This document shows, one piece after another, positions 1-30,421 of a DNA stretch of 30,421 bases. Each line of letters opens with the position of its first letter. Positions within the stretch are counted from its first letter, which is position 1. Made by a program: the position numbers and the translations under genes. Below the pieces are notes generated by a model. That model was given only the letters and a program-made list of their open reading frames with translations. It did no database searches and was not told where the DNA came from. The stretch is from a virus, in IMG/VR virus record IMGVR_UViG_3300025450_000083, positions 1 through 30,421 of that record; one strand, given 5' to 3'.

Positions 1-530
1 CCCAGAAGGGCATTGGCCCCGTCATCAGCGCGGGCTTCCTCGCCCACCTCGACATCACCAAAGCGGAGACCGCTGGGGCCTTCTGGTCCTTCGCCGGGCT
101 GGACAACAGCAAGACGTGGGAAAAGGGCCAGAAGAGGCCCTGGAACGCCTCCCTGAAGGTCTTGTGCTGGAAGGCTGGCGAGTCCTTCGTGAAGGTCTCG
201 GGCTATGATGATGCTTACTATGGCAAGGTCTACAAGCAGCGTAAGGCTCTGGAGATCGAGCGCAACGAGCGTGGCGAGTTTGCGGCCCAGGCCGCGGGGA
301 TCCTCGAGCGCAAGAAGATCGGCAAGGACACCGACGCCTACAAGGCTTACAGCGTCGGCAAGCTGCCGCCCGCGCACATCCACGCACGGGCCACCCGCTA
401 CGCCTCCAAGATGTTCCTCGCCCACCTGCACGAAGTCATGTACGTGCAGCACCACGGTCGGCAGCCGCCGTTGCCCTACGCGATCAGCATCCTGAACCAC
501 GCGCACAAGATCAGCCCTCCGGGGATGTGA
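1..530 (+). CDS. Nop/IS110-like C-terminal domain protein, probable Tas protein (5' truncated)
   Basis: The reading frame is open from the window edge (first full codon at nt 3) to TGA at 528-530, giving 175 visible residues. Visible residues 3-16 (GIGPVISAGFLAHL) look like a helix-hairpin-helix segment. A conserved-looking stretch around residues 31-62 follows (AGLDNS, KGQKRPWNASLK, then CWKAGESF), then a charged helical region and a final helical segment at about 122-170. This pattern resembles the C-terminal domain of IS110-type transposases and the Nop domain of box C/D snoRNP proteins. That relationship is the published hallmark of Tas proteins. The 36-nt-period array starts 3 nt after the stop, so I infer this is the RNA-binding part of a Tas protein. 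Whether it carries RuvC (TasR), HNH (TasH) or no nuclease lies upstream of the window. The alternative is a plain IS110-like transposase remnant, but no IS ends are visible and the array argues against it. Confidence 0.7.
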   Translation, partial: QKGIGPVISAGFLAHLDITKAETAGAFWSFAGLDNSKTWEKGQKRPWNASLKVLCWKAGESFVKVSGYDDAYYGKVYKQRKALEIERNERGEFAAQAAGILERKKIGKDTDAYKAYSVGKLPPAHIHARATRYASKMFLAHLHEVMYVQHHGRQPPLPYAISILNHAHKISPPGM

Positions 531-533
531 TCC

Positions 534-1552
534 GATTTAGCCAAGCATTTGGACAGCACCAAATCAGCGGAGCGAGCCATTGAGCCAGACAGCACCATTT
601 AACGTGAGCGAGCCATGCCACACGACAGCACCATTTTGCCTGAGCGAGCCATGCCATACGACAGCACCATCTTGCCGGAGCGAGCCACGAAGATGAACAG
701 CATCAGGTGCCGAGAGCGAGCCATAAACGGAGGCAGCACCATTTAACGAGAGCGAGCCAATCCCTATGACAGCACCATTTCAGCGGAGCGAGCCAGAATG
801 ACAGACAGCATCAGCGGCCACGCGCGAGCCACAAGCAGTGACAGCACCAGGTTTGGAGAGCGAGCCAAATACCCCGACAGCACCATGCCCCATGAGCGAG
901 CCACAATGCACGATAGGACCATATAACGTGAGCGAGCCACTATGAGTAACAGCACCAGGCGTGGTGAGCGAACCACCCCCTCGGACCAGAACCAAAAGGC
1001 GAGAGTGAGCCAGAGCGAAAGACAGCACCACTGGACCCGAGCGAGCCAGTGTGAGGGACAGCACCAACATCACGGAGCGAGCCATATCGCACGACAGCAC
1101 CATTGGCCCCGAGCGAGCCAGAACACGCGACAGCACCATAGAGAGCGAGCGAGCCATGCGGTTAGACAGCACCAATTACGAGGAGCGAGCCACCTGGGCA
1201 GACAGCACCAAAGTGTTGGAGCGAGCCACGTCGTGCGACAGCACCATTGGGCCCGAGCGAGCCACTAGACGCGACAGCACCATAGAAGGCGAGCGAGCCA
1301 TGCAGCCAGACAGCACCAATGACCACGAGCGAGCCATATAGCCAGACAGCACCAAGTCCGCAGAGCGAGCCATTATGACTGACAGCACCATAGAAAGCGA
1401 GCGAGCCACGGCTCGAGACAGCACCAAATAATCAGAGCGAGCCAGGTTGGAAGACAGCACCAACGCTGAAGAGCGAGCCACTCAGCAAGACAGAACCACT
1501 ATCGGCGAGCGAGCCATCTTGTGCGACAGGACCATAGAGCGTGAGCGCCTCA
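534..1552 (+). repeat. TIGR-like array: 36-nt units of two alternating 10-nt repeats and two 8-nt spacers
   Basis: Repeat R1 (GACAGCACCA) starts at 552, 588, 624, 660 and so on to 1525 (28 copies, about 20 exact). Repeat R2 (GAGCGAGCCA) starts 18 nt after each R1, at 570, 606, 642 and so on to 1543, plus a degenerate leading copy at 534-543 (about 24 of 29 exact). The period is exactly 36 nt, with one single-base insertion at 984. Every R1-R2 and R2-R1 gap is 8 nt and variable in sequence. R1 and R2 match each other at 6 of 10 positions. Degenerate copies are R1 at 696, 732, 804, 912, 948, 985, 1489 and 1525, and R2 at 534, 822, 966, 1003 and 1543. This is not CRISPR: the repeats are far too short and there are two alternating types. 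It matches the TIGR arrays processed to 36-nt, dual-spacer tigRNAs that accompany Nop-domain Tas proteins. Strand is inferred from the upstream gene. Confidence 0.85.
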
Positions 1553-1908: not shown

Positions 1909-4215
1909 ATGGCGTCAGTTGAGCCATTCCACCAACCTAACAAGGAACTGATGGCGTCCCACCTGGACGTTCTGTTCTCGCGTGCGATGAGTGGAAAGGT
2001 TGAAATCACCTCTATCCACGCAACTGATAGGAAAACATCACCTAAAACACAGCTGTTTGATGTCGATGACGAAGCCGCGATTGAGTGGGCTGCAGCCGTC
2101 AATCAGGAGCCGGGCTGGAACGTCTATGTCGGCGCCGCCGTGCGCAAGGATGAAACCCAGCCTAACAAGGCCGCCACTGACAATGACTTCCTGATATCAT
2201 ACGTCCTGTTTGCCGACGCCGACACGCCAGAGCAGCTCGAGCAGGCCCGATCAACCTACATCAAGCTGGGCCTCACCCCGCCTCTGGTCGTCATCACCGG
2301 CAGGACGCCGCACAAAAGAGCGCAGTTCTGGTGGCCGCTCGAGGAGCCGATCGTAGATGTGGAGGTCATGCGCTCAAGCTTGCGTGGCATCGCCAATGCA
2401 TTGGGTACGGATCCGAAGGTCTGCACAGCCAAGCAGATCATGCGGCTGGCAGGTTCCATAAGCTGGCCCAAAGACAAGGAAGGCAGGATCATCGAGCAGA
2501 CGCAGGTGATCATGCCGAAGAATGCCTCAAGGTGCTTCTACCTCGAGCAGATCAACAACGCATTCCCACCGGCAGCCGTCACAACAACGCCGACCGGCAT
2601 CACAACGCCAACACCTGACAGGCCAATCGATCTCTACGGGTTCGAAGTCGACGGCAGGGAAGACCGCATGACGCGCCTTGTCTGGGCCCGCGTCTGCGAC
2701 ATGCACAGAATAGCCCCGATGCCACCCGGCAAGGAGGAAATCGAGGCAGAAATCGAATCCCTGTTCGACATCTACCTGTCGAAGGTCAACACCCGGCTGC
2801 CGCTGAAAGGCATGTCGAAGGCCGAAGCCCTCGAGGCAGAAGGCCGCGGCATCACAGAGATGCGGCACAAGTTCCATGCAGCCCTGAAGCTGTGGGACAC
2901 GAAGGTCAGGGAGCACGCAGCAGTCGAAAAGCCCAAGGAGGCCCAGAAAGCCCCACAGAAGGCCACAGAGACGCGGTTTGATCCTGAGACGGGTGAGGTC
3001 ATAGAGGACGACGAAGAGGCCTCACAGGGCGTTCTGGAAGGCCCTGGAGCGGGTTTGAGCGGGTGGACGGGCGTAGTGCCGCCTCCGAGGCCGTGGGCCT
3101 ACGCTGACTTCCTGATGCGTCAGGCCGTCACAGCCGTCGCAGCACCGCCCGGCGTGGGCAAAACAACGTTCAGCTTCCAGCTCGGTCTGGCGTTCGCGCA
3201 GGATATGCAATTGGGCGACTGGACGCCTGTTGTGGGCGGCGGCGGCAAGGTCTGGCTGTACAACAATGAAGAGCCGAAGGACGAACTGGACCGGCGCTTC
3301 CTCGCGTCTTGCATCGAAGCTGGCTCGGATCCCGAGCTGGTCGCCAGAAGGTTCTCGTACACCAGCGGGCTTACGGAGCCATTCACCATAGGCGGCATGG
3401 ATGAAAGCGGATCTTTCTTCAGGAGTCCCGATGTCGATCGCGTCAAGCGCGTCATCAGGCACAACGATATCAAGTTGTTCATCGCCGACCCCCTGGTTGA
3501 ATTTCATACGGCGCCGGAGAACAACAACGATCTGATGAAAGCGGTAGGCGGTATCTTCCGCGAAATAGCCGTCGACTGCGACTGCAGCGTCTTGCTGTTC
3601 CACCATACGCCAAAGTCAGCCGGGTCGGACAACAGCGCCGGTGAGATGAACAGTCTCAGAGGCGGCGGCGCCCTCGTCGGTCAGGCGCGGTTTGTCTACA
3701 CGATATTCGCCATGTCGAAACAGGACGCCAGAGACTACGGCGTGAAGCCCGACGAGCGACCGGCGTTCGTCCGGTGGGACTGGGCCAAGTCAAACATGGC
3801 GCCGATGGCCGGTGAGGCCATGTGGTGGCGCAAGGTCGGCGTCGGGCTGGGGAACGAAGATGACACCAGGCCGCAGGACCATGTCGGCGTGCTGCGCAGG
3901 GTCAACCTGACGCTCGTTGATGAGGGGTACGACGGTAAAACGATGGAGGAGCGCGTCAGGTCCGAAATCGAGTTCAACAAGGAGGTCGTGGCGACCCTGG
4001 TGCGGTACAGCCACGTGTCGCCGGAGACAGCGTGTCCGAAGTCAGACCTGGTCGCCAAGGTCGATCGTGAGGCGCTCAAACTGCCGCGGAAGGCCGTCGA
4101 GGATAAGGCCGCCAAGGTGTTCGATGGCATGAAGCTGGAGGGGTATGAAGTGCGGGTTGTGGAGCAAATCCGGGGGTCTTTGACCGTCAGAAAATACTAC
4201 GTGGTCGGAGGATAG
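1909..4215 (+). CDS. Primase-helicase fusion (RepB-like AEP primase + RepA-like ATPase)
   Basis: This 768-residue protein is the likely replication initiator or replisome core. The N-terminal half resembles RepB-type archaeo-eukaryotic primases: an acidic pair D103/D105 in LFADADT, then VVITGRTPHKRAQFWWPL (about 127-144) and KQIMRLAGSISWP downstream. The C-terminal half is a RecA-fold, RepA-type hexameric helicase. It shows Walker A PPGVGKTT (413-420), Walker B-like LFIADPL (D527), the FHHTPKS motif (H565, H566) and the SLRGGGALVGQARF region typical of the AAA_25/RepA family. A charged linker (about 340-385) joins the two. The start at 1909 follows an AAAGGGAG stretch. A single gene providing both priming and unwinding is common in phages and mobile elements. 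No DNA polymerase gene is seen in the window. Confidence 0.85.
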   Translation: MASVEPFHQPNKELMASHLDVLFSRAMSGKVEITSIHATDRKTSPKTQLFDVDDEAAIEWAAAVNQEPGWNVYVGAAVRKDETQPNKAATDNDFLISYVLFADADTPEQLEQARSTYIKLGLTPPLVVITGRTPHKRAQFWWPLEEPIVDVEVMRSSLRGIANALGTDPKVCTAKQIMRLAGSISWPKDKEGRIIEQTQVIMPKNASRCFYLEQINNAFPPAAVTTTPTGITTPTPDRPIDLYGFEVDGREDRMTRLVWARVCDMHRIAPMPPGKEEIEAEIESLFDIYLSKVNTRLPLKGMSKAEALEAEGRGITEMRHKFHAALKLWDTKVREHAAVEKPKEAQKAPQKATETRFDPETGEVIEDDEEASQGVLEGPGAGLSGWTGVVPPPRPWAYADFLMRQAVTAVAAPPGVGKTTFSFQLGLAFAQDMQLGDWTPVVGGGGKVWLYNNEEPKDELDRRFLASCIEAGSDPELVARRFSYTSGLTEPFTIGGMDESGSFFRSPDVDRVKRVIRHNDIKLFIADPLVEFHTAPENNNDLMKAVGGIFREIAVDCDCSVLLFHHTPKSAGSDNSAGEMNSLRGGGALVGQARFVYTIFAMSKQDARDYGVKPDERPAFVRWDWAKSNMAPMAGEAMWWRKVGVGLGNEDDTRPQDHVGVLRRVNLTLVDEGYDGKTMEERVRSEIEFNKEVVATLVRYSHVSPETACPKSDLVAKVDREALKLPRKAVEDKAAKVFDGMKLEGYEVRVVEQIRGSLTVRKYYVVGG

Positions 4216-7228: not shown

Positions 7229-9913
7229 TTGAAGCCTCTGAAGATTGAGCTGCCCAATGGCTTTCAGATCAATCCCGAAGTTCAGCTTCGTGATCTTGAT
7301 CGTGCTGACTTCGAGGACAGCCTCTATCTGTTTTTGAGGAACGCCTGGAGGTTTATTGACAGCGCGCCATGGACGGATGGCTGGCCGATCGAGGCGGTGG
7401 CCGAGCATCTGCAGGCTGTGGTTGATGGCGACATCAAGAGGCTGATCATCAACATTCCGCCTCGGTGTGGGAAGCTGTTGGCCGACGACACCCCTGTGCT
7501 GACCACCAACGGATGGAAAAACCACGGCGAGCTCCAAGTTGGCGATCATGTGTTTACGCCATCGGGGGTTCCGACGCGGGTGGAGGCTATTTCCGAGCCA
7601 GCGCCCGCCAATGTCCGCATGGAGTTTTTTGATGGCAGTGTGATTTACTGCCATGAAGACCATGAGTGGGTGTTTTACAATCGTTCGACAAAAACGTGGG
7701 AGAACGTTGAGGCGCGGGTGTTTTTGGAGCCTCGTCGGGGGCGATGGGGGCAGACTAAGGGCAAGGTTAAGCAGGTCTTGTCAGACGATCGGGCGCTTTA
7801 TCAACTTCCATTGAAGTGCGCCCTGCAATTCCCCGAGGCAATTTTGAAGATGCCGCCGTATGTTTTGGGCGCTTGGCTTGGGGACGGGAGCACAGGAAAG
7901 CCCTGCATATCACATGCGGCGTCAGATCAGTCTTACATCGACAAGATCGTGGGCCTTGGATACCCCATCAGCACGTCGCACGTTCACGCGAAGACCGGTG
8001 TTTTGACCACTTACTTCTCGGGATCCGGCGGCCGTTCAAATCCGCCCCGCATGACGCAGGAATTGCGCGAACTGGGCGTGTTTACCGACAAACACATCCC
8101 GCAAGCATACCTGAGGGCCTCTGTCGGGCAACGGCTTGAACTTCTGGCGGGTTTGATTGATACGGACGGAAACGTGGATGAGGGTTCTCGGTGCCACTTC
8201 ACGACATCCAGCCGAGCTTTGGCTGACGGGGTTGTTGAGCTTGTCCGATCGCTGGGGTGGCGGGCGTCCGAAATTGAGATTGAGCCGGTTCTCTCTTCGT
8301 CTGGCATCCAAGGCAAGCGCCCCTATTGGGTCATTAGTTTTCAGCCATCCATGCATATCCCTACCGCGCTGGAGAGAAAGCGCATCAAGAGGCTTGCGCC
8401 TAAACGCCGAATTGGGCTGAAGAGCGTTTCGTTCGACCCATGCGGCAAGATCGGCAGATGCATTCAGGTCGCCATGGGCGATGGGCTGTATCTTGCCGGT
8501 CGCCATTTAACGCCCACCCACAATTCCTCGATTACGTCGGTGGCGTTCCCGGCCTGGACGTGGGCGCAGATGGTGAATGGGTCGACGTGCGGCCCCGGCG
8601 TTCAGTTTTTGCATGCTTCGTATGCGCAGCAGCTGACTTTGCGTGACAGCGTGAAGTGTCGGCGGTTGATTGAGTCGCCTTGGTACCAGGGGATGTGGGG
8701 CGACCGCTTTACGTTGAACACGGACCAGAACACCAAGAGCCGGTTTGGCAATGACAAGGGCGGCGAGCGTCTGATCACGTCTGTCGGCGCCGCGGTGACG
8801 GGTGAAGGTGGCGACATCATTGTGATCGACGACCCCAACGCCGCCAACGAGGCGTTTTCTGAGGCGAACATTGAGGCGACCAAGGAGTGGTGGGACGGCA
8901 CGATGTCGACCCGTTTGAACAATCCGAAGACGGGCGCTTTTGTGGTAATCCAGCAGCGTCTGGCTGAAGATGATTTGACCGGCCATATTTTGGAGAAGGA
9001 GGCCGACAACTGGACGCATCTTTGTTTGCCGATGAGGTATGAGCCTGAGCGTGCTTTTGTGAGCAAGATCGGGTGGCAGGATCCGCGGTCTGAGCCGGGC
9101 GAGCTTTTGTGGGAGGATCGGTTTGGGGATGCTGAGGTGGCGAGCCTCGAGCGGGCCCTTGGCATTTACAAGTCTGCCGGTCAGCTGCAGCAGCGGCCTG
9201 AGCCTGCTGGCGGCGGTGTGATCAAACTGGAGTGGTGGGAAACGTGGAACCAGCCGACATTTCCCCCCATGGATTTCATTTTGGCCAGCTTGGACACGGC
9301 GTACACGTTGAAGCAGGAGAATGACGCCACGGCGTTGACGGTGTGGGGCGTGTTTTCGACTGATACGTTGGCTGCTGCTGCCCGTTATCTGGATCAGGAC
9401 GGGCGGCCATCGTACATCGACAGGGCTTACAACGAGGCTGCGCCCAAGCTGATGCTGATGCATGCCTGGCAAGATCGTTTGGCGCTGCATGATCTTGTTG
9501 AGAAGGTGGCCGCGACCTGTAAGAAAATGAAGGTCGACAAGCTGATTATTGAAAACAAGGCGGCTGGTATTTCAGTTTCGCAAGAATTGCGGCGGCTTTA
9601 CAGCCATGAAAAGTTCTCTGTGCAGCTTTATGACCCCAAGAGCATCGATAAGCTGTCCAGATTGCACTCTATTTCTCATTTGTTTCAGGAAGGTATGATT
9701 TATGCGCCTGACAAGTCGTGGGCGCAGATGGTGATCAACCAGGTTGGTCAGTTTCCCAAGGGGAAGCATGATGACTTGGTCGATACGGTGAGCATGGCGA
9801 TCAGGCACTTGCGTGATATGGGCCTGATGGTGCGTAACAACGAGCGAATTGAAGAGATTGAGTCTGTGAGAATTTACCCGGGTGGTAAGGATGTGCCACT
9901 ATATCCCGCCTGA
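7229..9913 (+). CDS. Terminase large subunit interrupted by an intein
   Basis: The translated product has 894 residues; removing the intein (residues 83-432) leaves a 544-residue packaging motor. The start is TTG at 7229, supported by GAGGAG at 7215-7220. The N-terminal ATPase has its P-loop split by the intein: PPRCGK (to K82) joins SSITSVAFPAWTW (from S433). Walker B is IIVIDDPN (D534/D535). The C-terminal RNase H-like nuclease shows LDTAYT (D689), LIIENK and KHDDLVD (D848/D849). Insertion exactly in the P-loop means an unspliced protein should not hydrolyse ATP. The gene follows terS and precedes the portal genes. Confidence 0.93.
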   Translation: MKPLKIELPNGFQINPEVQLRDLDRADFEDSLYLFLRNAWRFIDSAPWTDGWPIEAVAEHLQAVVDGDIKRLIINIPPRCGKLLADDTPVLTTNGWKNHGELQVGDHVFTPSGVPTRVEAISEPAPANVRMEFFDGSVIYCHEDHEWVFYNRSTKTWENVEARVFLEPRRGRWGQTKGKVKQVLSDDRALYQLPLKCALQFPEAILKMPPYVLGAWLGDGSTGKPCISHAASDQSYIDKIVGLGYPISTSHVHAKTGVLTTYFSGSGGRSNPPRMTQELRELGVFTDKHIPQAYLRASVGQRLELLAGLIDTDGNVDEGSRCHFTTSSRALADGVVELVRSLGWRASEIEIEPVLSSSGIQGKRPYWVISFQPSMHIPTALERKRIKRLAPKRRIGLKSVSFDPCGKIGRCIQVAMGDGLYLAGRHLTPTHNSSITSVAFPAWTWAQMVNGSTCGPGVQFLHASYAQQLTLRDSVKCRRLIESPWYQGMWGDRFTLNTDQNTKSRFGNDKGGERLITSVGAAVTGEGGDIIVIDDPNAANEAFSEANIEATKEWWDGTMSTRLNNPKTGAFVVIQQRLAEDDLTGHILEKEADNWTHLCLPMRYEPERAFVSKIGWQDPRSEPGELLWEDRFGDAEVASLERALGIYKSAGQLQQRPEPAGGGVIKLEWWETWNQPTFPPMDFILASLDTAYTLKQENDATALTVWGVFSTDTLAAAARYLDQDGRPSYIDRAYNEAAPKLMLMHAWQDRLALHDLVEKVAATCKKMKVDKLIIENKAAGISVSQELRRLYSHEKFSVQLYDPKSIDKLSRLHSISHLFQEGMIYAPDKSWAQMVINQVGQFPKGKHDDLVDTVSMAIRHLRDMGLMVRNNERIEEIESVRIYPGGKDVPLYPA
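7475..8524 (+). mobile_element. Class 3 intein with LAGLIDADG homing endonuclease in TerL
   Basis: The 350-residue intein spans L83-N432. Block A reads LLADDTPVLTTNGW with Leu, not Cys or Ser, at position 1. Block B has the conserved His (H145) followed by W147. Block F has C411 in RCIQVAM. Block G is TPTHN, with T430, H431 and N432, followed by Ser at +1. Lack of an N-terminal nucleophile combined with the Trp-Cys-Thr triplet defines class 3 inteins, which splice through the internal Cys. Between the splicing blocks are two LAGLIDADG-type motifs, LGAWLGDG (213-220) and LAGLIDTDG (306-314), so the intein probably homes into intein-less terL alleles. Confidence 0.9.
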
Positions 9914-21858: not shown

Positions 21859-22548
21859 ATGTCCACAAGCGGGACGTATAATTTCAACCCGTCGCTGGGC
21901 GAGGTCACCCTCTACGCTTACAACCTGTGCGGAATTCGAAACACCGCCATCGTTCAGGAGCACATGGAGGCCGCCCGCATGGCGGCCAATATGCTTCTGG
22001 GGCGGTGGTCTTCGGAGGGTGTGAACCTGTGGGCGGTGGATTTGCAGACGATCCCGCTGGTGCAGGGGCAGGCGACCTACAGCATTCCGACCAACACGAT
22101 CACCATGCTGGACACCTATGTCGTCCAGAACAGCGGCGGCGCGTCGATCAACCGCCTGATCCTGCCGATCAGCCGCACGGAATATGCGTCTTACCCGAAC
22201 CCGCAGCAGCAGGGCTTCCCGACCACCTACTGGCAGGATCGCCTGATCAACGGCACCGTCACCCTGTGGCCGGTGCCTGATGGCAATGAAAGCTCGCTGA
22301 ACTACTACCGCGTCCGTCAGATTCAGGACTCCAATTTCACCAGCGGACAGCAGGTCGAAATCCCGTACTACTTCCTCGAGGCGTTCGCCTACGGTCTGGC
22401 CTTCCGCCTGTCCCTTGTGTGGGCCCCAGAGAAGGCGCAGCTGATCAAGCCGCTGGCTGATGAGGCCTATGCCATTGCCGCCGCTCAGAACATCGAAACG
22501 GCGCAGCAGTACATTTCCCCGACCATCTCTGGCTACTTTAGGCCATGA
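21859..22548 (+). CDS. Head-completion / tail accessory protein (P22 gp4-like)
   Basis: This 229-residue protein fits the gp4-type connector family. It has a helical N-terminus with EHMEAARMAANMLLGRWSSE and WAVDLQTIPLVQGQATYSIP, then a beta region with TEYASYPNPQQQGFPTTYW, LINGTVTLWPVPDG and LNYYRVRQIQD. It ends with a helical YFLEAFAYGLAFRLS, then IKPLADEAYAIA. In P22, gp4 closes the portal and receives the tail, supporting a short-tailed virion. Its stop overlaps the ATG of the homing endonuclease. Confidence 0.75.
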   Translation: MSTSGTYNFNPSLGEVTLYAYNLCGIRNTAIVQEHMEAARMAANMLLGRWSSEGVNLWAVDLQTIPLVQGQATYSIPTNTITMLDTYVVQNSGGASINRLILPISRTEYASYPNPQQQGFPTTYWQDRLINGTVTLWPVPDGNESSLNYYRVRQIQDSNFTSGQQVEIPYYFLEAFAYGLAFRLSLVWAPEKAQLIKPLADEAYAIAAAQNIETAQQYISPTISGYFRP

Positions 22549-23231
22549 GCATCGATACGTTTTACGTCTATGAACACTGGCGCCCTGATAAGGGCGAATG
22601 TTTTTACGTGGGAAAAGGTAAAAAAAATCGCGCTCTTTATTTAAAACAACGCAACAAACATCATGCCGCAATTCAAGCAAAATTGGCTCGGCAAGGATTA
22701 TGCGTTGAAATAAAAATTATTTCTCATGGTTTGACGGAAGAAGAAGCGTTCAATCTTGAGACGAAGCAAATACTTTTTTGGCGGGCTGACGGAGCCGACT
22801 TGGCAAACCGCACTTTAGGGGGTGGGGGAATTTCTGGGCTGGTCCATACAAAAGAAACGCGCAAAAAAATGAGTGTTTCTCAAAAAAAGCGAAGCCCGCG
22901 CCCTCCTCATTCCATGGAGGTAAGGGCAAAAATTAGTCGGGCTCAAATGGGGCAAAAAAGAAGGCTTGGCATTCCTCAAAGCGATAAAACAAAAAAAATT
23001 CTTGCTGATCTGGGTCGCAAGAATTTTGAAATCTTTAAAAAATATATGTCCATGGGGCCTGCTGCATCATCAAAAAGAGTTGTTTGCGTAAATGATAATT
23101 TATCATTTGAGAGCGCAAGCGCCGCAGCAAGGCATTATGGTGTGGCTAAAAGCTCCGTGATAGAATTGTGTTTAGGTAAAAAACACAGAAAAACAGTTGG
23201 CGGAAAAGTCTTTAAATACGAGGAGGCGTAA
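22545..23231 (+). CDS. Free-standing GIY-YIG homing endonuclease
   Basis: The protein has 228 residues. The catalytic N-terminus shows the paired motifs YVYEHW (7-12) and FYVGKGK (20-26) with conserved downstream Glu residues (EEEAFNLETKQ). Next comes a NUMOD3-like DNA-binding segment (SGLVHTKETRKKMSVSQKKR), and near the C-terminus a NUMOD1/HTH-like segment (SASAAARHYGVAKSSVIELC). It is markedly A-rich with AAA/TTT codons, unlike its neighbours, which indicates recent transfer. It inserts cleanly between two structural genes, with an ATGA overlap. Confidence 0.88.
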   Translation: MSIDTFYVYEHWRPDKGECFYVGKGKKNRALYLKQRNKHHAAIQAKLARQGLCVEIKIISHGLTEEEAFNLETKQILFWRADGADLANRTLGGGGISGLVHTKETRKKMSVSQKKRSPRPPHSMEVRAKISRAQMGQKRRLGIPQSDKTKKILADLGRKNFEIFKKYMSMGPAASSKRVVCVNDNLSFESASAAARHYGVAKSSVIELCLGKKHRKTVGGKVFKYEEA

Positions 23232-23995: not shown

Positions 23996-26900
23996 ATGGC
24001 TAACGTAACGATCCCTAATCTCCCCAAAGCAATCTCCCTCACTGGGACTGAGCAGCTCGAGGCTGTTCAGAGCGGAACGTCTGTTTCGGTTACGGCTGCC
24101 CAGATTGCCGGTCTTGCGCCGGGCGCTACCGGCGCCACTGGGCCGCGGGGCGCGACTGGCGCCGTAGGATCGACGGGATCGACAGGTCCAACGGGTCCGC
24201 AAGGCAATTTCGGCGCCACTGGTGCGCAGGGTCCGACAGGCCTAACCGGCGCGACCGGGGCGACGGGTGCAACTGGTGTTGTTGGCGCCAGCGGTGTTGC
24301 TGGCCCGACTGGACCTACGGGCCCTACGGGCGTTGTGGGGCCGACTGGGGCCACGGGGATGGGGGCTACGGGCCCCACGGGGCCTTCTGGGCCATCTGGG
24401 CCTGTAGGACCGTCTGGTGCAACGGGGCCTGTTGGGGCGACGGGTCTGACTGGGGCCACGGGGTCGCTGGGGGCGACGGGGCCTGTGGGAGCGAGCGGCG
24501 CCACGGGAGTGGCCGGCCCTACAGGCCCCACGGGCGCCAGCGGTGTTGCTGGTCCGACCGGAGCCACGGGTCTGCAGGGCGCTTTGTATGCGACGACCAG
24601 CACGACATCCCTGACCCTGACTATCAGCTCGCCGTCTCTGACGGTGGGAACTGGTCTGTCCTACACGGTCGGGCAGCCGGTGCTGATCGCCAACGATTCC
24701 ACTCACTACATGTCTGGCACTGTCGTTTCGTACAATTCCGGTACGGGGGCGATGGTCGCCAACATCACGTCTGTCACCGGAACCGGCACGTTTACGTCCT
24801 GGAACGTGAACCTGAACGGCGCTGCTGGCCCTGCCGGTGCGACGGGTGCGACGGGTGTTGGCGCCACAGGCGCCACGGGTGTTGCCGGTCCTTCTGGTCC
24901 CTCTGGGGCTTCCGGCCCGACCGGACCCACGGGCTTAACCGGCCCAACTGGCCCAACTGGTCCTGTCGGTGCGACGGGCCTGACCGGAGCCACCGGCGTG
25001 GGATCCACGGGCGCCACGGGCGCGACCGGCCTGACTGGCCCCACAGGATTGACGGGCCCCACCGGCCCCACCGGCGCGACGGGTCCGACTGTTTATCCGG
25101 CTGCCGGTATCGCCAACTCCACGGGTACAGCTTGGGGAACCAGCTACAGCACCACCGGCACGGGCACGGTTGTCGCTCTGGCTACGTCGCCCACGCTGGT
25201 GACGCCCACGATTGGCTCTGCGGGTCTGACGCTGAATGGTTCGACTTCGGGCACTACGATCCTGAAGGCTAACGCCACCGCAGGCTCTTACACGTTTACC
25301 CTGCCGTCTTCTGGTGGGACTAACGGCTACATCCTGTCCACCGATGGCTCGGGCGGAACGTCGTGGATAGCAAATTCTGGCGGCGGCGGAACCGTCACCA
25401 GTGTTGGCGTGTCGGGCGGCACAACGGGCCTGACGACTTCTGGCGGACCCATTACGGGATCGGGCACGATCACTTTCGCGGGCACGCTCAATGCCGCCAA
25501 TGGCGGCACGGGCGTTACGGCATCTACGGGTGCAAACAGCGTCGTTTTGCGTGACGCCAATGCCAATACCACGGTCAACTACCTCTATGAAGGCTACTCC
25601 AATGTGGCGGCGGCGGGGACCACCACCACGCTCACCGCCTCCTCGGCGTTTAGCTATGTCGTTACTGGATCCGGCGGTCAAACGTTCAAACTGCCTGATG
25701 CCACCACGCTTTCCGTGGGCGCGACGTACAGCTTCAACAACAACCAAAGCAGCGGCACGATTGTTGTCCAGAACAATAGTTCGACCACTGTCGCCACGAT
25801 CCAATCTGGCGGGTACGTTAACCTCACCCTGCTGACTAATTCGGTGGCGGCAGGGACGTGGGACACGCACTATTCCGCGCCCTCAAACGTCAGTTGGTCC
25901 ACCAATACCTTATCATATCCGGGCAGCATTACCTCCGCGACTTGGAATGGCTCTGTTGTCACCGGAACCTATGGCGGTACGGGCGTTAACAATGGCTCCA
26001 ACACTATTACGTTGGGCGGCAATTTTACCACGTCGGGCGCATTTACGACCACGCTGACGGTTACGGGCAATACCAACGTCACGCTGCCGACTTCCGGCAC
26101 TTTGGTAAATACGGCCGTCACCACGCTTTCCAGTTTGGTTTCTATCGGCACTATCGCCACTGGCGTTTGGAACGGTACGGCTATTGGCATCGGCTACGGC
26201 GGCACTGGCCTCACCGCTACGCCTACCAACGGACAACTCGCTATCGGTAATGGTACGGGCTATACGCTTGCCACGCTGACCAACGGTACCGGCATTAGCG
26301 TTACCAATGCCTCTGGCTCCATCACTATCGCCAATACGGGCGTCACGTCTTACCCCGGCGCCGGTATCCCCAATTCCACCGGTTCTGCGTGGGGTACGAG
26401 CTATACCACGACGGGTTCCGGCACCGTTTTGGCCTTGGCTACATCTCCTAGTTTCACCACGCCGACGCTTGGCGTGGCTACGGCTACGACCATCAACAAG
26501 GTCACGCTCACGGCCCCGGCTACTGGCTCGACGCTGACTATCGCTGACGGCAAGACGCTGACGGCGAGCAACAGCCTCACGCTGGCTGGTACTGACAGCA
26601 CGACGATGACGTTCCCCTCGTCCAGCGCCACTGTGGCTGGTCTGGGCATCTCGCAGACGTTTACCGGCACTCAGACCTTCAACGGAACCTCGTCGGTTTT
26701 GGCCGAGGTTCTGCTTAATGCGGCTGAGACGACCACGGTGTCTGCCACGGCGGCTACGGGCACTATCGCGTTCTACCCTTCAACCCAGAGCGTCCTCTAT
26801 TATACGTCGAACGCCTCGGCTAACTGGACGGTGAACCTGACGTTCTCGTCTGGCACGACGCTGAACACGGCCATGTCCACCGGGCAGAGCGTGACCGTCG

Positions 26901-27103
26901 CGTTCCTAGTGACACAGGGCAGCACCGCGTATTACAACAGCACGGTGCAGGTTGACGGCTCGACCAGTGGCGTGACAACTAAGTGGCAGGGCGGCGCTCC
27001 CACTTCCGGTAATGCCAGCGGCGTGGACATCTACACCTACACGATTATCAAGACGGCGAGCGCGACCTTCACCGTGTTCGCCTCTCAGACGCAGTTCAAG
27101 TAG
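23996..27103 (+). CDS. Tail fibre with two collagen-like segments
   Basis: This 1035-residue fibre has a short N-terminal attachment region (about 1-40) and collagen-like Gly-X-Thr/Pro repeats in two blocks (about 42-200 and 278-362), separated by a beta insert. A long beta-rich region follows, with GGTG motifs and a duplicated unit ([20 protein letters not shown] near 370 and [20 protein letters not shown] near 787). The C-terminal domain is Thr/Ser-rich. Collagen-like repeats form trimeric rods in phage fibres. The two adjacent downstream genes probably help with adhesion or assembly. Confidence 0.85.
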
Positions 27104-29416: not shown

Positions 29417-30421
29417 ATGCGCTTCCATGTCTTGGGCATTCCCCACACCGCGACGAACAAAAACTATCTGCCCTGCGCCTACACCCAGAAAGTCCTGAAG
29501 CTATGCAGGATGCTGACGGACCTCGGCCATTACGTAATCCACTACGGCAACGAGGCTTCGGAGGTCATCTGCTCCGAGCATGTCAACGTCACCACCGAGG
29601 CGGACCTGATCGAGGCCTATGGCTTTGAGGAGTGGAAGTCGCAGGTCTTCAAATTCTCCAACGACGACAGCTGCTACAAAACCTTCTTCGCCAATGCGAT
29701 CGGAGAAATCCATCGAAGGAAGAAGAAGTATGACTTCCTTCTATGTATGTGGGGTCACGGCCACCGCGCCGTAGCAGACGCGCATCAGGACATGATCGTT
29801 GTCGAACCCGGCATTGGCTACGGATCCGGCCACTTTGCGCAGTACAAGGTGTTTGAATCCTACGCCATCATGCACGCCTTCCAAGGCATGGACCTGGTGC
29901 AGAACGCCTGTCGCATGAACAATTACGACGTGGTGATCCCAAACTATTTCGACCTGAATGACTTCTATTATCAGCCGAACAAGTCCGACTACCTGCTCTA
30001 TCTGGGCCGGGTGAACACCGGCAAGGGCGTCCACATCGTCATGCAGATGGCCGAAAGGCTGCCTAACCAGAAATTCATTGTGGCAGGTCAAGGAACCTTG
30101 GCTGACGTTGGCTATCCTGACGGCCTACCCAACGTCAATTTCGTCGGCTTTGCGGACGTAAGAAAACGCCGCAAGCTGCTGTCAGAAGCCAAGGCAGTCC
30201 TTATGCCAAGCCAATATGTGGAGCCCTTCGGCGGCGTTCAGATCGAGGCCCTGTTGTCAGGAACGCCAACGATCACATCTGACTGGGGCGCATTCACCGA
30301 AAACAATCTGCACGGCATCACCGGCTATCGCTGCCGCACCATGGATCACTGGATGTGGGCTGTGCAAAATACTCATCTCCTGTTTCCTGCAGCATGCCGG
30401 TCGTGGGGAGAAAATTTCTCG
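29417..30421 (+). CDS. GT4-type glycosyltransferase (3' truncated)
   Basis: ATG at 29417 opens a frame still open at the window end (335 residues). The C-terminal half has GT-B, Glyco_transf_1 features: [20 protein letters not shown], then [18 protein letters not shown], and the nucleotide-sugar E-x7-E motif in [15 protein letters not shown] (E269, E277). The N-terminal half fits the acceptor domain. The gene follows the lysis cassette. It may alter host surface sugars to block superinfection, glycosylate virion proteins, or modify DNA. The sequence does not decide between these. Confidence 0.85.

What the first reader, a model, noticed from the sequence alone, without database searches (positions are those of the whole stretch)
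534..1552. TIGR-type tandem guide array in a phage, exact 36-nt period
Two alternating 10-nt repeats, GACAGCACCA and GAGCGAGCCA, are each separated by variable 8-nt spacers, 28 units long, in a fixed 18+18 register. A Nop/IS110-like protein ends 3 nt upstream. Processed TIGR guide RNAs (tigRNAs) are 36 nt and carry two short spacers, and Tas proteins have Nop domains related to IS110 and box C/D proteins (Faure et al. 2025, as I remember it). The period here equals that RNA length. Few known locus types combine these features, so this is probably a TIGR-Tas locus.
Basis: partly seen in the sequence, partly recalled or inferred. Interest (0 to 1): 0.96.

Follow-up and report, generated by a model that had tools for sequence, protein, structure and literature searches.

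The report
Phage TIGR-TasA guide array, 28 units
A phage fragment carries a 28-guide TIGR array next to the end of its Tas gene, a recently described kind of RNA-guided DNA-binding system; the locus is a new example of a known kind, and a bacterium with a related system gives an unreplicated hint that such guides may aim at rival mobile elements.

Summary
Window 534-1552 is an array of 28 units, GAGCGAGCCA-8 nt-GACAGCACCA-8 nt: 27 units of exactly 36 nt, one of 37. The ORF ending at 530 corresponds to residues 106-280 of a Tas protein. Profile and fold searches rank solved TasR and TasH structures first, above IS110. The closest relative (96% identical) is complete at 280 aa and lacks a nuclease, so the type is TasA. 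Of 214 related Tas loci parsed, 204 carry this kind of array (reversed-sequence control: 9 of 200). The locus is a new member of a known kind (Faure et al. 2025).

Natural targets are unknown in that paper. I found none in the carrying phages. In the isolate Acidobacteriaceae KBS 96, one of six guides of a prophage-borne TasA array exactly matches, gap 0, the excisionase gene of a second integrated 10-kb element. About 0.06 exact hits were expected in that genome. This suggests nuclease-free, RNA-guided silencing of competing elements, but it is one case, and three partly sampled MAGs gave no second one. A codon-phase pattern among near-duplicate guides failed to replicate and is withdrawn.

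The parts
3..530 (+). C-terminal 175 aa (residues 106-280 by alignment to L002) of a TasA-type Nop-domain protein; the N-terminus is cut off by the contig start
534..1552 (+). TIGR dual-repeat array, 28 units (27 of 36 nt, one of 37 nt)
534..543 (+). first, degenerate edge repeat GATTTAGCCA
570..579 (+). edge repeat consensus GAGCGAGCCA (first perfect copy)
552..561 (+). loop repeat consensus GACAGCACCA (first perfect copy)
966..1002 (+). irregular unit 13: 37 nt, 9-nt spacer A, degenerate loop ACCAGAACCA
1543..1552 (+). terminal 3'-degenerate edge repeat (GAGCGCCTCA); no rho-independent terminator was detected after it
1909..4215 (+). next large gene downstream: AAA/primase-helicase-like replication protein (context only)

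Best explanation
This is a phage-borne TIGR-TasA locus. Identity (shown by sequence and fold): a Nop-domain Tas protein followed immediately by a dual-repeat TIGR array. Mechanism (inferred from the characterised family): the array is transcribed and cut within edge repeats into 28 guide RNAs of about 36 nt. A TasA dimer holds each one, and spacer A and spacer B pair with opposite strands of a nearly contiguous target (top strand = A + reverse complement of B, gap 0-2). As no nuclease domain is present in the closest full-length relative, the complex should bind and bend DNA without cutting it. Most likely use (inferred, weakly supported): blocking transcription or replication of competing mobile elements in the same cell.
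For: Array anatomy and zero chance expectation. Tas homology by sequence and by fold, top 11 matches all TasH/TasR. The complete relative L002 is 280 aa with 96% identity and no N-terminal nuclease. 204 of 214 parsed loci (78 of 84, 126 of 130) carry a dual-repeat array; with the same score cut-off 192 of 200 loci pass forward and 9 of 200 pass when the sequence is reversed. Edge and loop end in the same base in 116 of 119 non-redundant arrays. Targeting rule from Faure et al. 2025, PMC12045711. Candidate natural target in KBS 96: guide 2 (TAAAAGCA/TTCGATTC) matches exactly, gap 0, at 6329962-6329977, starting 25 nt after the ATG of an excisionase-like gene in a second integrated element; expected exact hits for all six guides at gaps 0-2 were 0.062.
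Against: No expression or RNA data. The window's own Tas N-terminus is not on the contig, so a nuclease fusion is excluded only by analogy to L002. None of the 230 distinct guide pairs of the first 20 arrays parsed (the window's among them) has an exact target in 720 kb of carrier phage DNA, and one-mismatch matches are at control level. One 18-nt guide of a freshwater relative had no match in IMG/VR. Five of six KBS 96 guides have no exact match, and sampled integrated elements of three MAGs gave none.
Confidence: 0.8

Rival explanations
1. The gene is TasH or TasR-like in this particular phage (a nuclease domain in the missing N-terminus), so the system cleaves targets rather than only binding them.
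For: The first single-sequence PDB hit is TasH, and the 8-nt spacers resemble those of the Salicola TasH system (SpTIGR, 16 nt of spacer in total).
Against: The 96%-identical relative L002 has a 280-aa ORF with in-frame start and stop and no nuclease domain. The other relatives whose frames were printed are about 265-350 aa and show no added domain in the alignment.
Confidence: 0.06
2. The gene is an IS110-family transposase and the repeats are an unrelated tandem array.
For: A sub-threshold Pfam hit to Transposase_20.
Against: The profile ranks TasR and TasH far above IS621. The fold search gives the same order. 204 of 214 related loci parsed carry the same dual-repeat architecture. The full-length relative is too short for, and lacks, an N-terminal DEDD domain.
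Confidence: 0.01
3. The array is decayed or has no current targets: near-duplicate units arise by duplication and drift, and the guides have no selected DNA partner.
For: No targets were found in carrier phages. Within-array near-duplicates exceed chance (1-3 differences: 8 observed against 1.7 mispaired in the first set of arrays; 9 against about 1.45 in the new set). Several window loop repeats are degenerate (units 5, 11, 13).
Against: Repeats stay recognisable while spacers differ in 119 non-redundant arrays (median 15 units), and edge/loop end bases agree. One exact natural match was found in KBS 96.
Confidence: 0.12

Closest known systems
TIGR-TasA, e.g. Flavonifractor plautii FpTIGR (Faure et al. 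2025, PMC12045711)
   Same: Solo Nop-domain Tas protein with a dual-repeat array of alternating 8-12-nt repeats and two short spacers per unit; phage context is described in that paper.
   Different: Spacers are 8 nt here (9 nt in FpTIGR); 28 units, against the 5-15 that the paper calls most common.
TIGR-TasH of Salicola phage CGphi29 (SpTIGR)
   Same: 8-nt spacers; homologous Nop domain (27.9% identity in tblastn; solved TasH structures 21kl, 9vzx and others).
   Different: That protein has an N-terminal HNH nuclease; the close relatives of this one do not.
TasR (PDB 9mty)
   Same: Nop domain fold and predicted guide architecture.
   Different: RuvC nuclease in TasR; repeats begin UG and end CCA there, begin GA and end CCA here.
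IS110/IS621 bridge-RNA recombinases
   Same: Distantly related RNA-binding domain (E=3.5e-4).
   Different: No DEDD domain in the full-length relative; an array of guides instead of one bridge RNA.

Membership tests
TIGR-Tas | Nop-domain Tas protein homologous to characterised Tas | tested here: met
   TasR E=1.8e-23, TasH E=7.3e-15; fold matches ranks 1-11
TIGR-Tas | Array of two alternating 8-12-nt repeats separated by short variable spacers, adjacent to tas | tested here: met
   same in relatives
TIGR-Tas | Edge and loop repeats share (covary in) box D and box C motifs | tested here: met
   GA...CCA in both repeats of the window; across 119 arrays the last bases agree in 116
TIGR-Tas | Array begins and ends with truncated edge repeats | tested here: met
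   degenerate first edge at 534 and 3'-altered last edge at 1543
TIGR-Tas | Rho-independent terminator after the array | tested here: inconclusive
   none found by consensus scan; weak hairpin, z = -0.18
TIGR-Tas | Processing into 36-nt tigRNAs that depends on Tas | not testable with these tools
   needs small-RNA sequencing
TIGR-Tas | DNA targeting with spacers A and B on opposite strands | not testable with these tools
   needs a binding assay; one exact natural match of this geometry in a relative
TasA subtype | No HNH or RuvC domain | tested here: inconclusive
   true of the 96% identical complete relative L002; the window gene is truncated at its 5' end
IS110 transposase | DEDD catalytic domain | tested here: not met
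   absent in the full-length relative; the window's own N-terminus is off the contig

The most novel reading that the evidence does not exclude
Nuclease-free TIGR-TasA systems of phages and prophages act as RNA-guided repressors that silence key regulatory genes (for example excisionase) of competing prophages and satellites in the same cell, with multi-guide arrays as a library of rivals. The KBS 96 match would then be the first identified natural TIGR target.
Probability: 0.3. Interest if true: 0.88.

Novelty: new member of a known kind. Interest (0 to 1): 0.5.

Why it matters
The natural targets and biological role of TIGR systems, and of nuclease-lacking TasA above all, are stated as open in the founding paper. 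This locus belongs to a large phage TasA clade (hundreds of IMG/VR loci match) whose arrays can be parsed into more than a thousand guides. An isolate (KBS 96) that holds both a prophage-borne TasA array and an exact guide match in another integrated element turns the open question into a direct laboratory test. If confirmed, it would be RNA-guided interference between mobile elements without DNA cutting.

Tried and rejected
1) Codon-phase idea: window units 3 and 4 differ only at synonymous positions if A+rc(B) is read as CHTGK, and L064 units 8/11 look alike. In the first set of arrays, where the idea arose, positions 3,6,9,12,15 were enriched (21 of 36 differences, nominal p=0.0007); over all pairs including cross-array ones there was no phase signal; in 65 independent new arrays there was none either (13 of 44, 13.75 expected). 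Rejected as a small-sample effect. 2) Targets in the carrier phages: no exact hit for 230 distinct guide pairs in 720 kb; one-mismatch hits at the level of mispaired controls. 3) IMG/VR scan with window guide 3: 27 hits over gaps 0-2, mostly in unrelated genes, consistent with chance; an 18-nt guide of a freshwater relative gave none. 4) Replication of the KBS 96 result around integrases found in three MAGs (partly sampled): nothing beyond control. 5) IS110 transposase reading: rejected on profile and fold ranking; no Rfam family matches the window. 6) Plasmid collection: one weak transposase hit only. 7) Rufus stem-loop guides against their own phage: none.

Full report
OBSERVATION. The window is an IMG/VR record of 30,421 bp that starts inside a gene. 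From 534 to 1552 two 10-nt repeats alternate, GAGCGAGCCA (edge) and GACAGCACCA (loop), separated by 8-nt spacers: 28 units, 27 of exactly 36 nt and one (unit 13, 966-1002) of 37 nt. The joint motif has 27 matches, all in the array, and an expectation of 0.00 in shuffles. The upstream ORF stops at 530. The first and last edges are degenerate, as the founding paper describes for ends of TIGR arrays.

IDENTITY. The 175-aa ORF matches the solved TasH (E=1e-7) and TasR (2.6e-7) by single-sequence search. A 15-member family profile gives TasR 1.8e-23, TasH 7.3e-15 and IS621 3.5e-4. The AlphaFold model of the complete relative L002 (pLDDT 81) has TasH/TasR structures as its first 11 PDB matches, then IS621. 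L002 is 96% identical and complete: 280 aa, no nuclease, so TasA in the paper's terms. The window aligns to residues 106-280.

RELATIVES. Profile scans of IMG/VR find 439, 291 and 430 encoded relatives (overlapping sets), of which the best 80 each were fetched. I ran 214 loci through the array parser: 84 (the window, L060-L134 and eight earlier loci) and 130 (L175-L299 and five GTDB contigs); some are different cuts of one contig. A dual-repeat array was found in 78 of 84 and 126 of 130, 204 of 214 in all, 192 with at least 5 units (an earlier notebook entry that says 75 is a miscount). The parser tries many repeat pairs and tolerates mismatches, so I checked it: with one score cut-off, 192 of 200 loci pass forward and 9 of 200 when the sequence is reversed. 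Merged without redundancy there are 119 arrays of at least 5 units, median 15, longest 60; 13% have 28 or more. Edge and loop end in the same base in 116 of 119. Between window and L002 the tas gene and the array align at nucleotide level and nothing further downstream does, which suggests that the module moves between different phages. Near-identical Tas proteins carry different or reshuffled units (L014-L021), and L004/L005 differ by a two-unit deletion.

HOW IT MOST LIKELY WORKS. By the rule tested in the paper, spacer A and spacer B pair with opposite strands. From the reported 8-nt 3' overhangs I derive the target as A + rc(B) on one strand with gap 0-2. Without a nuclease the RNP would bind and bend DNA. 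Shown here: anatomy, homology, agreement of the repeat ends. Inferred: processing, binding, role.

TARGET SEARCH. In this order I tried: (1) the 230 distinct guide pairs of the first 20 arrays parsed (19 loci) against 720 kb of carrier phage DNA, gaps 0-2: no exact hit, one-mismatch hits as in mispaired controls; (2) phase of differences between near-duplicate units: apparent in the arrays that suggested it, absent over all pairs and in 65 new arrays; (3) IMG/VR scans with two guides: none, and 27 chance-like hits; (4) an isolate with its host genome, Acidobacteriaceae KBS 96 (L136), whose TasA locus with a 6-unit array is the same as an IMG/VR provirus. All six guides were searched exactly in its 6.7 Mb: five have no hit, one (unit 2) has a single hit, at gap 0.

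THE KBS 96 HIT. TAAAAGCAGAATCGAA lies at 6,329,962-6,329,977, starting 25 nt inside an excisionase-like ORF (phrog_66, phrog_575; HTH_17) near an XRE regulator, a tyrosine integrase, a weakly O-like replication protein, an HK97-type capsid gene and a prohead protease. A 26-bp direct repeat that resembles a tRNA 3' end, at 6,321,852 and 6,332,103, suggests a 10.25-kb integrated element, about the size of a capsid-forming satellite (the satellite label is my inference). The tas locus is elsewhere, at 136 kb. Expected exact hits for the six guides at gaps 0-2 are 0.062 by a second-order Markov estimate from sampled DNA. In 150 genomes of the family the exact 16-mer occurs only here, with 12 one-mismatch sites. 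Eight integrase-like places exist in the genome, so integrated elements are probably a small part of it; the meaning of the location was judged after the fact. The other guides show no near-match above control around those integrases.

WEIGHT. One isolate, one guide of six, no replication in three partly sampled MAGs. I call it a candidate natural target, not a demonstrated one.

VERDICT. As a kind it is known since 2025; the subtype is most likely TasA; this locus is a new member, and I could not check whether it is in that paper's supplementary table.

Noticed in passing
L312 3440-3860 and 3803-4510 (Mycobacterium phage Rufus gp73, annotated 'transposase'): 76 mycobacteriophage records match a TasA query; Rufus gp73 matches solved TasR at E=1.1e-14, and the intergenic region before it looks, by eye, like stem-loop TIGR units. 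M. smegmatis phages would be a tractable laboratory model.
   Followed up: partly
L313 3480-3790 and 4560-4790 (Gordonia phage Morrissey, beside gp42): Stem-loop-like units with CCA boxes flank a Tas-like gene.
   Followed up: no
L314 4600-4970 (Microcystis phage Mvi-JY20): Dual-repeat TIGR array (ATGCGAGCCA / ACGAAACCCA) after a Tas-like gene annotated as hypothetical.
   Followed up: no
L019 3400-5480: Very long, degenerate TIGR array (about 48 units parsed) upstream of its tas gene in a 113-kb contig.
   Followed up: no
L300 1281-1541 / G021 6321852-6332130 (KBS 96): A 10.25-kb integrated element with integrase, XRE, excisionase, capsid and protease genes, bounded by tRNA-like direct repeats, holds the exact guide match; an integrase remnant and a third copy of the repeat lie at about 6319122-6319390.
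   Followed up: partly
window 7229-9913: Large terminase gene interrupted by a stretch with LAGLIDADG homing-endonuclease matches, probably an intein.
   Followed up: no
window 22545-23231: ORF with a NUMOD3 motif and a GIY-YIG-like start, probably a homing endonuclease (the GIY-YIG reading is by eye).
   Followed up: no
window 23996-27103: 1035-aa collagen-repeat protein, probably a fibre.
   Followed up: no
window 29417-30421: Group 1 glycosyltransferase running off the contig end.
   Followed up: no
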